DNA of 64,000 bases from assembly GCF_013201935.1 (NCBI RefSeq), contig NZ_CP053833.1, positions 558,001-622,000 of the forward strand, in the 5' to 3' direction. Position numbers and translations under genes: made by a program. This document shows positions 13,817-15,700 of this stretch, one piece after another. The notes below the pieces were generated by a model that searched no databases, was not told where the DNA came from, and worked only from the letters and a program-made list of their open reading frames with translations. Every line of letters starts with the position of its first letter. The stretch's first letter is position 1. Origin of the DNA: Arcobacter cloacae. Its GTDB lineage: Bacteria; Campylobacterota; Campylobacteria; Campylobacterales; Arcobacteraceae.

Positions 13817-13824
13817 CTACAACA

Positions 13825-13856
13825 AGAGTGAATAGATATAATATTCACTCTTTTAT
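13825..13856 (+). terminator. Terminator after ftsH
   Basis: A 9-bp stem, GAGTGAATA (13826-13834) with TATTCACTC (13842-13850), ends in TTTTATTT nine bases after the ftsH stop. It is an intrinsic terminator closing the prmA-ftsH unit. Confidence 0.88.
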
Positions 13857-13893: not shown

Positions 13894-13922
13894 TTGACAA
13901 AATAGAATTTATTAATTATACT
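13894..13922 (+). promoter_or_regulatory. Sigma-70-like promoter for leader peptide and leuA
   Basis: TTGACA (13894-13899) is separated by exactly 17 bases from TATACT (13917-13922). It lies 42 bases before the leader peptide ATG and after the ftsH terminator, so it should drive leader and leuA as one transcript. Confidence 0.75.
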
Positions 13923-13964
13923 TAATCACTTGAAATACAAAATACTTAAAATAAGGAGAGAGAT

Positions 13965-14042
13965 ATGAAAATATTTAATTTTTCAAATAACCATTTTATC
14001 AAAAGTGTTAACTCTCTTCTACTTCTTAATTTTTCTCTCTAA
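13965..14042 (+). CDS. Leucine-rich leader peptide (leuA attenuator peptide)
   Basis: The 25-codon frame reads MKIFNFSNNHF, then IKSVNSLLLLNFSL and a stop. It contains four consecutive leucine codons (CTT CTA CTT CTT) and a fifth (CTC) just before the stop. The ribosome binding site AAGGAGAGAG is the strongest nearby, far better than expected by chance. It sits between a consensus promoter and leuA, 104 bases before the leuA ATG. This is the layout of amino-acid attenuation leaders such as leuL of enteric bacteria: scarce charged leucyl-tRNA stalls the ribosome and changes the RNA fold. That mechanism here is an inference. Confidence 0.82.
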   Translation: MKIFNFSNNHFIKSVNSLLLLNFSL

Positions 14043-14061
14043 TTATAATTTTTTATAATTA
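14040..14061 (+). promoter_or_regulatory. AT-only hairpin in the leuA leader, possible attenuator element
   Basis: A perfect 9-bp inverted repeat (TAATTATAA, loop TTTT, TTATAATTA) overlaps the stop codon of the leader peptide. Downstream, AAAC/GTTT arms near 14083-14094 are followed directly by CTTTTTTT, a weak terminator-like element. A stalled ribosome on the leucine codons would affect pairing here. The stems are AT-rich and weak, so the exact switch is uncertain. Confidence 0.45.
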
Positions 14062-14146
14062 TTAATTTACAAAAACAATCAAACTTAGGTTTTCTTTTTT
14101 TAAATAAAAAAAGATATAATATATAACATTTTAAAAGGTTAATACA

Positions 14147-15700
14147 ATGGATAAAAATAAAATTATAGTATTTGATACAACATTAAGAGATGGTGAACAA
14201 AGTCCTGGTTGTTCTATGAACACAGAAGAAAAAATAAAAGTGGCATTACAGTTAGAAAAATTAGGAGTTGATGTAATTGAAGCTGGTTTTGCAGCTGCAA
14301 GTCCAGGAGATTTCGATGCTGTTAGTAGAATTGCTGAAATTGTTAAAAATTCAAGTATCTGTTCTTTGAGTAGAGCTGTTGAGAATGATATTAAACAATC
14401 AGGTTTAGCAGTTAGTAAAGCTCCTAAACATAGAATTCATACATTTATAGCAACTTCACCAATTCATATGAAATACAAATTGAAAATGACTCCAGATGAA
14501 GTAATCAAAAGAGCAATTCATGCAGTTGAGTACGCAAAAACATTTGTTGATGATGTTGAGTTCTCTTTAGAAGATGCAGGAAGAAGTGAAATTTCATTTA
14601 TGAAAGAAGTAATGGATGCTGTAATAGAAGCAGGGGCTAGAACTATAAATTTACCAGATACAGTAGGATATAGATTACCAACAGAATTAGGTGCAATGGT
14701 TAAAGAATTAAGTGCTTATGCAGGTGATAGAGCGATTATTTCAGTTCATAATCACAATGATTTAGGATTAGCAACAGCAAATACTTTAGCAGCTGTTTTA
14801 AATGGTGCTAGACAAATTGAAGTAACAATAAATGGTTTAGGAGAAAGAGCTGGAAATTCAGCTTTAGAAGAGGCTGTTATGGCTATTAAGACGCGAAAAG
14901 ATGCTTTTGGAGATTTATATACAACAATTAATACTCCTGAAATTTATGCAACTTCAAGATTAGTAGCAACAATTACAGGTGTTGAGCCACAACAAAATAA
15001 AGCAATTGTTGGTAAAAATGCATTTGCACATGAAAGTGGAATTCACCAAGATGGTGTTTTAAAACATCAAGAAACTTATGAAATTATGAAACCTGAAGAT
15101 GTTGGAGTATTTAAAGACTCTACTTTAATTTTAGGTAAACATAGTGGTCGTGCAGCATTTAGAGATAAAATTGTTCATTTAGGTTTTGATAAAGTAACAG
15201 ATGAAGAGTTAAATGCAGCATTTGAAAGATTTAAAGTTTTAGCTGATAAGAAAAAAGAAGTAACAGATGATGATATTAGAATGTTAATAACTGATGAATC
15301 TTTAAATCATGATAAAACTTATGAGTTAATAGGATTACAAATTAGTGATTGTACAGCAGGTGTTCCAACAGCAGCTGTTGCTATTAAATATAAAGATGAG
15401 ATTTTAAGAGATGCAGCTATTGGTGATGGAACGATGGATGCTATATTTAAAACAATTGATAGATTAACAGGTTATAATGGCGAATTAAAAGATTATAAAG
15501 TAATCTCTGTAACTGAAGGAAAAGATGCTTTAGCAAAAGTTACAACAAGAGTATCTTTTGATGAAACAAGTCCTGCTTTTGTAGGACATGGATTAAGTAT
15601 TGATACAATGCTTGCAACTGCAAAAGCATATTTAGGAGCTTTAAATTCTTATCTTTCTCAAAAAGAGAGACTTTCTAAAAGTTGTGAGCATCAAGTATAA
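14147..15700 (+). CDS. leuA: 2-isopropylmalate synthase
   Basis: LeuA condenses acetyl-CoA with 2-oxoisovalerate, the committed step of leucine synthesis, and is usually feedback-inhibited by leucine. The 517-residue protein has '[12 protein letters not shown]' at 10-21, the metal-binding 'HNHNDLGLA' near 201-209 and 'GKHSGRAAF' near 331-339. The C-terminal allosteric domain spans about 390-505, so the bacterial-type full enzyme is intact. The start ATG has 'AAAAGGTTAATACA' before it. It follows a leucine-codon leader peptide, consistent with attenuation control. The other leu genes are not adjacent. Confidence 0.96.

What the first reader, a model, noticed from the sequence alone, without database searches (positions are those of the whole stretch)
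13894..14146. Leucine-codon leader peptide and probable attenuator before leuA
A consensus promoter (TTGACA-17-TATACT) drives a 25-codon frame with a strong ribosome binding site and five Leu codons, four in a row, 104 bases before leuA. AT-rich hairpins overlap its stop and follow. Attenuation by leucyl-tRNA supply is well known in other bacteria; this small gene would normally be unannotated.
Basis: partly seen in the sequence, partly recalled or inferred. Interest (0 to 1): 0.66.

Follow-up and report, generated by a model that had tools for sequence, protein, structure and literature searches.

The report
Leucine-sensing leader peptide before leuA
A tiny gene rich in leucine codons sits just before leuA in an Arcobacter-type bacterium and very probably helps tune leucine synthesis to leucine supply; this kind of gene is already published for the group, but its detailed layout here does not match the textbook switch.

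Summary
A 25-codon frame (13965-14042, MKIFNFSNNHFIKSVNSLLLLNFSL) with a strong ribosome site lies 104 bases before leuA. By a fixed rule a Leu-rich leader precedes leuA in 146 of 182 regions from this and related genomes, against 1 on the reverse strand and 1.1 expected in shuffles. In Arcobacteraceae the peptide is under protein-level selection, promoter P1 is kept in 73 of 76, and the last Leu codon is CTC in 69 of 69 unique leaders, though CTC is 0.8% of Leu codons in the window's long ORFs.

The kind is published: LeuL of Campylobacter jejuni, reported in most Epsilonproteobacteria with leucine genes (PMC3847290) and seen translated in C. jejuni (PMC11955535).

No intrinsic terminator follows the leader (1 of 89 Arcobacteraceae, 2.4 expected), so the A/T hairpins are not a normal attenuator. 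And a second conserved promoter-like site, P2 (TATAAT 14115-14120; 74 of 76), lies 26 bases before leuA.

Best reading: a LeuL leader sensing charged tRNA-Leu and controlling read-through from P1, possibly through Rho, on top of P2 output. New member of a known kind.

The parts
13824..13852 (+). terminator-like hairpin after ftsH; upstream border of the unit
   Evidence: 11-pair stem, 3 GC, T-rich tail; also found by my own scanner as a positive control
13894..13922 (+). promoter P1 (TTGACA-17-TATACT), predicted start near 13929
   Evidence: TTGACA-N16-18-TATANT upstream of the leader in 73 of 76 leader-bearing genomes; alignment. Start site inferred, not measured
13953..13960 (+). Shine-Dalgarno AAGGAGAG of the leader
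   Evidence: AGGAGAG-type in most aligned relatives
13965..14042 (+). leader peptide frame LeuL, 25 codons
   Evidence: uncorrected pN/pS 0.22 for codons 2-17 in 63 unique leaders against 0.84 and 2.3 in the other two frames
14016..14027 (+). Leu run, codons 18-21 (CTT CTA CTT CTT)
   Evidence: longest Leu run 4 in 56 of 76, 3 in 15, 1-2 in 5; codon choice varies while Leu is kept
14037..14039 (+). terminal Leu codon CTC, directly before the stop
   Evidence: last Leu codon is CTC in 69 of 69 unique Arcobacteraceae leaders; CTC is 0.8% of 1700 Leu codons in the window's long ORFs
14040..14061 (+). hairpin H2, 9 A-U pairs starting at the stop codon
   Evidence: fold; own arms pair better than arms swapped between species (-2.54 against -1.42, 0 of 2000 permutations). 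Not recovered by RNAalifold on 32 sequences
14043..14092 (+). G-poor stretch between stop and the P2 repeat, candidate Rho loading RNA
   Evidence: C exceeds G in 67 of 75 unique regions, against 7 of 26 upstream gaps in the window, leuA's own included
14093..14114 (+). inverted repeat TCTTTTTTT-AAAT-AAAAAAAGA abutting P2 (hairpin or operator)
   Evidence: own arms better than swapped arms (-6.47 against -5.73, 0 of 2000); pattern occurs once in the whole genome
14115..14120 (+). P2, -10-like TATAAT, 26 bases before the leuA start
   Evidence: TATAAT 15-45 bases before leuA in 74 of 76 leader-bearing genomes, 24-29 bases from ATG; kept in G041, which lacks the leader
14133..14138 (+). Shine-Dalgarno AAAAGG of leuA
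   Evidence: conserved in alignment A1
14147..15700 (+). leuA, 2-isopropylmalate synthase
   Evidence: PF00682, PF22617 and PF08502 LeuA_dimer

Best explanation
This is LeuL, the leucine leader peptide gene of the Campylobacterota, with its control region. A strong promoter P1 makes a short RNA that is translated at once. Its 25-codon frame ends with four Leu codons and a terminal CTC. CTT and CTC, 74% of leader Leu codons in the family, are read by a single tRNA-Leu(GAG) gene in this genome. With enough charged tRNA-Leu the ribosome finishes and leaves, hairpin H2 closes over the stop, the bare C-containing, G-poor RNA is open (I suggest to Rho) and most P1 transcripts end before leuA. When charged tRNA-Leu(GAG) is short, the ribosome stalls on the Leu run or on CTC25, keeps H2 open and shields the RNA, and polymerase runs on into leuA. 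P2 supplies a basal level of leuA mRNA without the leader. Shown by sequence: leader, conservation, codon bias, P1 and P2 motifs, absence of an intrinsic terminator, presence of rho. Inferred: both start sites, translation, stalling, read-through, Rho, the role of H2.
For: Leader in 146 of 182 regions, reverse-strand control 1, shuffles 1.1. Protein-level selection. TTA 3.3% in leaders against 58.9% in the window's long ORFs; 246 of 334 leader Leu codons are CTT/CTC; one tRNA-Leu(GAG), one TAG, one CAA, two TAA. P1 in 73 of 76, P2 in 74 of 76. No intrinsic terminator. C over G in the gap in 67 of 75 and in 65 of 68 leaders of other families, against 7 of 26 window upstream gaps. rho present, 669 bits. 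H2 arms match within species. C. jejuni LeuL: short RNA ending soon after the stop and ribosome profiling signal, both from passages only. No such leader before the leuC-like gene or ilvB of this genome, so of the three checked it is tied to leuA.
Against: No transcript data for this genus were found. If P2 is strong, the leader may matter little. By footprint arithmetic (recalled footprint size) a ribosome stalled on codons 18-21 would probably not reach H2; only one at CTC25 would. C over G is a weak sign of a Rho site, and the stretch before the leader SD shows it too (431 C, 174 G). RNAalifold finds no consensus structure in 32 sequences. Pairing of the leader SD with the Leu run shows no species-specific match (own -9.91, permuted -9.80), and SD pairing with the terminal CTC is supported in genus g1 only (19 of 25, 11.3 expected; outside it 21 of 44, 22.5 expected). 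18 f1 regions with full upstream sequence fail the leader rule, plus one cut off at 69 bases.
Confidence: 0.68

Rival explanations
1. Classical attenuator: stalling on Leu codons favours an antiterminator over an intrinsic terminator hairpin before leuA, as in enterobacterial leu and his operons.
For: Leu run near the end of a short frame, A/T hairpins behind it; in genus g22 of family f3 a hairpin over the last Leu codons and stop is followed by a U-rich stretch (TGCTACTTAGGTAGCA; 7 of 26 f3 regions have a terminator-like site against 0.8 expected).
Against: In the window and its family no GC hairpin plus U run (1 of 89, 2.4 expected). H2 has A-U pairs only, H3 one C-G pair, and neither is followed by a U run.
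Confidence: 0.12
2. The nascent peptide itself takes part: residues upstream of the Leu run act in the ribosome tunnel as an arrest or slow-down motif, so LeuL is more than a codon counter. This can hold together with the best explanation.
For: Non-Leu codons 2-17 are constrained as protein (pN/pS 0.22; leuA itself 0.14). In five other families the core LPKIEIKN just before the Leu run is near-invariant in amino acids (27 unique leaders) while wobble bases vary freely.
Against: Constraint could serve translation start, peptide stability or an unseen RNA element; the core differs between families (FIKSVN here, LPKIEIKN elsewhere, other cores in f2, f3 g30 and f4). No arrest has been measured.
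Confidence: 0.22
3. leuA is transcribed from P2 and the P1 leader RNA is a separate small transcript with little or no control over leuA.
For: P2 in 74 of 76 and kept in G041 without leader; C. jejuni leader RNA ends soon after the stop (passage).
Against: The leader's link to leuA across families and its Leu codon bias are hard to explain without control of leucine synthesis.
Confidence: 0.1
4. Translational control: the leader changes access to the leuA ribosome site on the long P1 mRNA.
For: Only that the long P1 mRNA could fold over the leuA start (fold of TSS to leuA+60, z 0.23).
Against: Leader frame and leuA SD show no species-specific match (own -7.46, permuted -7.61).
Confidence: 0.05

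Closest known systems
LeuL of Campylobacter jejuni and other Epsilonproteobacteria (PMC3847290, passages read; PMC11955535, passages read)
   Same: Short frame of 20-35 aa with Leu codons at its end, own ribosome site, directly upstream of leuA, biased to Leu codons that are rare in the genome.
   Different: In C. jejuni it precedes leuABCD; here the next genes after leuA are a thioredoxin-like and a haem-binding-domain gene. The peptide differs. P2 with its inverted repeat is not mentioned in the passages I saw. Whether the paper's Table S12 lists Arcobacter leaders I could not see.
Enterobacterial leu operon leader (recalled)
   Same: Four adjacent Leu codons in a short leader before leuA (recalled).
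   Different: No leucine-leader family among Rfam matches even at E 5, no Pfam or NCBIfam match, no intrinsic terminator.
tnaC-type Rho-dependent leader control (recalled)
   Same: A ribosome on or near the leader stop would decide whether RNA behind it is open to Rho.
   Different: There the signal is free tryptophan and a nascent chain; here it would be uncharged tRNA. Rho action is not shown here.

Membership tests
Campylobacterota LeuL | short frame of 20-35 aa with own ribosome site directly upstream of leuA | tested here: met
   25 codons, AAGGAGAG, 104 bases before leuA
[quoted passage not shown]
   5 Leu in the last 8 codons; leader codon use far from the window's long ORFs
Campylobacterota LeuL | conserved in relatives by position and Leu content | tested here: met
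   146 of 182 regions; controls 1 and 1.1
Campylobacterota LeuL | translated | not testable with these tools
   shown for C. jejuni only (passage); here selection pattern only
Campylobacterota LeuL | leader RNA ends shortly after the stop codon | not testable with these tools
   stated for C. jejuni (passage); no transcript data for this genus found
Enterobacterial leu leader family | match to a leucine-leader RNA or protein model | tested here: not met
   Rfam; Pfam; NCBIfam
Intrinsic-terminator attenuator | GC-containing hairpin and U run between leader and first gene | tested here: not met
Rho-dependent leader control | rho gene in the genome | tested here: met
   TIGR00767 at 669 bits, over cut-off
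Rho-dependent leader control | C-rich, G-poor RNA behind the leader | tested here: inconclusive
   C over G in 67 of 75, control 7 of 26, but the region before the leader SD is also C over G
Rho-dependent leader control | termination lost when Rho is inhibited | not testable with these tools
   needs an experiment

The most novel reading that the evidence does not exclude
LeuL of the Campylobacterota is a terminator-less leader in which a family-specific nascent-chain core (FIKSVN in Arcobacteraceae, LPKIEIKN in five other families) placed in the upper ribosome tunnel makes the ribosome linger on Leu codons, and the stalled ribosome gates Rho rather than an intrinsic hairpin; a second promoter with a structured spacer sets the floor.
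Probability: 0.18. Interest if true: 0.66.

Novelty: new member of a known kind. Interest (0 to 1): 0.36.

Why it matters
It extends a leader known experimentally only from C. jejuni (as far as the passages I read go) to 13 genera of the window's family with one peptide type, with quantified conservation, and shows that the usual terminator/antiterminator picture does not fit. That makes two questions testable in culturable relatives: how attenuation works without an intrinsic terminator in AT-rich bacteria, and why the peptide outside the Leu codons is conserved.

Tried and rejected
Leader SD pairing with the Leu run, a 9-pair helix in the minimum-energy fold: rejected as a specific switch because own pairs are no better than pairs swapped between species, and Leu codons drawn at leader-wide usage pair as well. 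The match of codon 17 with the SD base was mixed (25 T-A, 13 A-T, 22 T-T, 3 G-A, 1 C-T).

Leader frame pairing with the leuA SD, and leader SD with leuA SD: no match above permutation. RNAalifold on 32 stop-to-leuA sequences, chosen from the 76 as plus-strand loci: no structure, probably because A/T stretches misalign; H2 and the P2 repeat therefore rest on the swapped-arm tests, which do not correct fully for relatedness (the one-per-genus version gave 0 of 500 draws against for both).

The P2 inverted repeat as a feature of all families: supported in part of f4 (5 of 8 tested at shuffle p 0.05 or less; 4 of 12 had no -10-like site) and not in f3 (3 of 14 tested). Other Leu-run leaders in this genome: the pattern AGGAG-N45-75-CTNCTNCTN gives 49 matches, of which by eye only the leuA leader looks like one. 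Literature searches that added nothing on this question: (listings only).

Rows dropped before counts: one region with no upstream sequence (L170) was left out of the 182; 88 of the 171 genomes outside the family with a leuA match were not fetched, and those fetched were picked from the listed rows, so toward higher LeuA similarity. The 76 Arcobacteraceae leaders were picked by a peptide pattern from 99 f1 regions, so P1, P2 and codon counts describe leader-bearing genomes only. pN/pS values are uncorrected proportions; sequence sets include close relatives.

Full report
Observation. The frame, the promoter, the ribosome site, the Leu codons and the A/T hairpins are all present at the stated places. 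The downstream gene is leuA by three Pfam domains and the upstream gene is ftsH, closed by its own terminator-like hairpin.

More than chance. I took upstream-of-leuA regions of 182 genomes: 99 from the window's family, its own included (all 100 genomes with a leuA match, less one without upstream sequence), and 83 of the 171 matching genomes outside it. With one fixed rule (frame of 18-40 codons, SD, at least 3 Leu within 6 residues near the end) 146 of 182 have a leader; the same rule on the reverse strand hits 1, on shuffles 1.1. The 36 misses include all 6 of f5, the single f9, f1 genera g5, g8, g11 and g20, and four of six g35 plus both g34 in f3. One miss has only 69 upstream bases; two (g18) carry the family peptide with fewer Leu, and G045, G187 and G311 show a Leu-rich frame that fails the rule. 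In f1 genera g5, g8, g11 and part of g20, leuA appears to lie directly behind another reading frame, without leader or P2 (by eye).

Selection. In 63 unique 25-codon leaders of the family, codons 2-17 have an uncorrected pN/pS of 0.22, the Leu run 0.27 and codons 22-24 0.79; leuA codons 3-32 give 0.14, and the leader read in the other two frames 0.84 and 2.3. So the frame behaves as protein. The Leu codons are special: TTA falls from 58.9% in the window's long ORFs to 3.3%, and the last Leu codon is CTC in 69 of 69 unique leaders although CTC makes up 0.8% of 1700 Leu codons in those ORFs. Of the 58 tRNA matches in the genome I examined all nine of 82 bases or more; five are tRNA-Leu, one with anticodon GAG, the one that reads CTC and CTT (decoding rule recalled). 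CTT would be read by the same tRNA, so the strict CTC suggests an added base-level constraint that I could not identify (one search gives a hint in one genus only).

Outside the family the last Leu codon is not fixed (CTC in 26 of 68 leaders). In 28 genomes of families f3, f8, f10, f11 and f12, out of 52 examined there, the residues before the Leu run are LPKIEIKN or nearly so, with free wobble bases.

Promoters. P1 has a full -35 and -10 and is kept in 73 of 76 leader-bearing genomes. The whole genome has 38 such sites, five of them near-identical copies that look like ribosomal RNA operon promoters (inference from repetition and from tRNA genes nearby). P2, a TATAAT 24-29 bases before leuA, is kept in 74 of 76 and in G041, where the leader is gone. 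Just upstream of it lies an inverted repeat whose arms match within species better than between species and which occurs once in this genome. It may be a hairpin in P1 RNA or an operator of P2; I cannot tell which.

No intrinsic terminator. The general scan finds none behind the leader, and my scanner finds 1 in 89 regions of the family, with 2.4 expected from mononucleotide shuffles, while it does find the ftsH terminator. Some f3 genomes do have a hairpin over the last Leu codons and stop with a U-rich tail, so mechanisms may differ among families. The RNA behind the leader is poor in G, unlike most other upstream gaps in the window, and rho is present. That makes Rho the most likely terminator, by elimination rather than proof.

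Mechanism and limits. The step from leader to control of leuA rests on the position, the Leu codon bias and the C. jejuni precedent. For C. jejuni I read passages only: LeuL with 5 rare Leu codons, an RNA ending soon after the stop, and LeuL relatives in most Epsilonproteobacteria with leucine genes, from a comparison that included 3 Arcobacter species; and an initiation-site signal in ribosome profiling, with the remark that tBLASTn finds leuL generally only in C. jejuni or related Campylobacter. The leaders of other families differ strongly in sequence, which may explain that remark. I did not see the 2013 supplement, so I cannot say whether an Arcobacter leader was printed there.

Verdict. 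An ordinary and well-supported member of a published leader family, with three details worth a specialist's look: no terminator, a second promoter, and a conserved peptide with one fixed codon.

Noticed in passing
leader-bearing regions of families f3, f8, f10, f11, f12 among L194-L253: Leaders in five families share the core LPKIEIKN directly before the Leu codons, near-invariant in amino acids with free wobble bases (27 unique leaders).
   Followed up: partly
window 14093-14120: Inverted repeat of T and A tracts abutting the P2 -10 site, conserved by pairing in the family and unique in this genome; in part of family f4 a different repeat (ACCC/GGGT) sits at the same place.
   Followed up: partly
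G000:C1:174852-176126 (L299, L300): The best leuC-like gene of this genome scores far below the curated leuC cut-off (158 bits in its best stretch against 560) and has no Leu-rich leader; leuA stands apart from it.
   Followed up: no
own genome, 38 places: Full TTGACA promoters are few in this genome; five are near-identical (TTGACAAGAGGGRAAAAACCTATTATAAT) and probably belong to ribosomal RNA operons. P1 is of this class.
   Followed up: no
window 54396 (minus strand): The only other full TTGACA promoter-type match outside ORFs in the window.
   Followed up: no
f3 g22 regions, e.g. L204-L206: Hairpin TGCTACTTAGGTAGCA built from the last Leu codons and the stop, followed by a U-rich stretch: a possible terminator that a stalled ribosome would block directly.
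   Followed up: no
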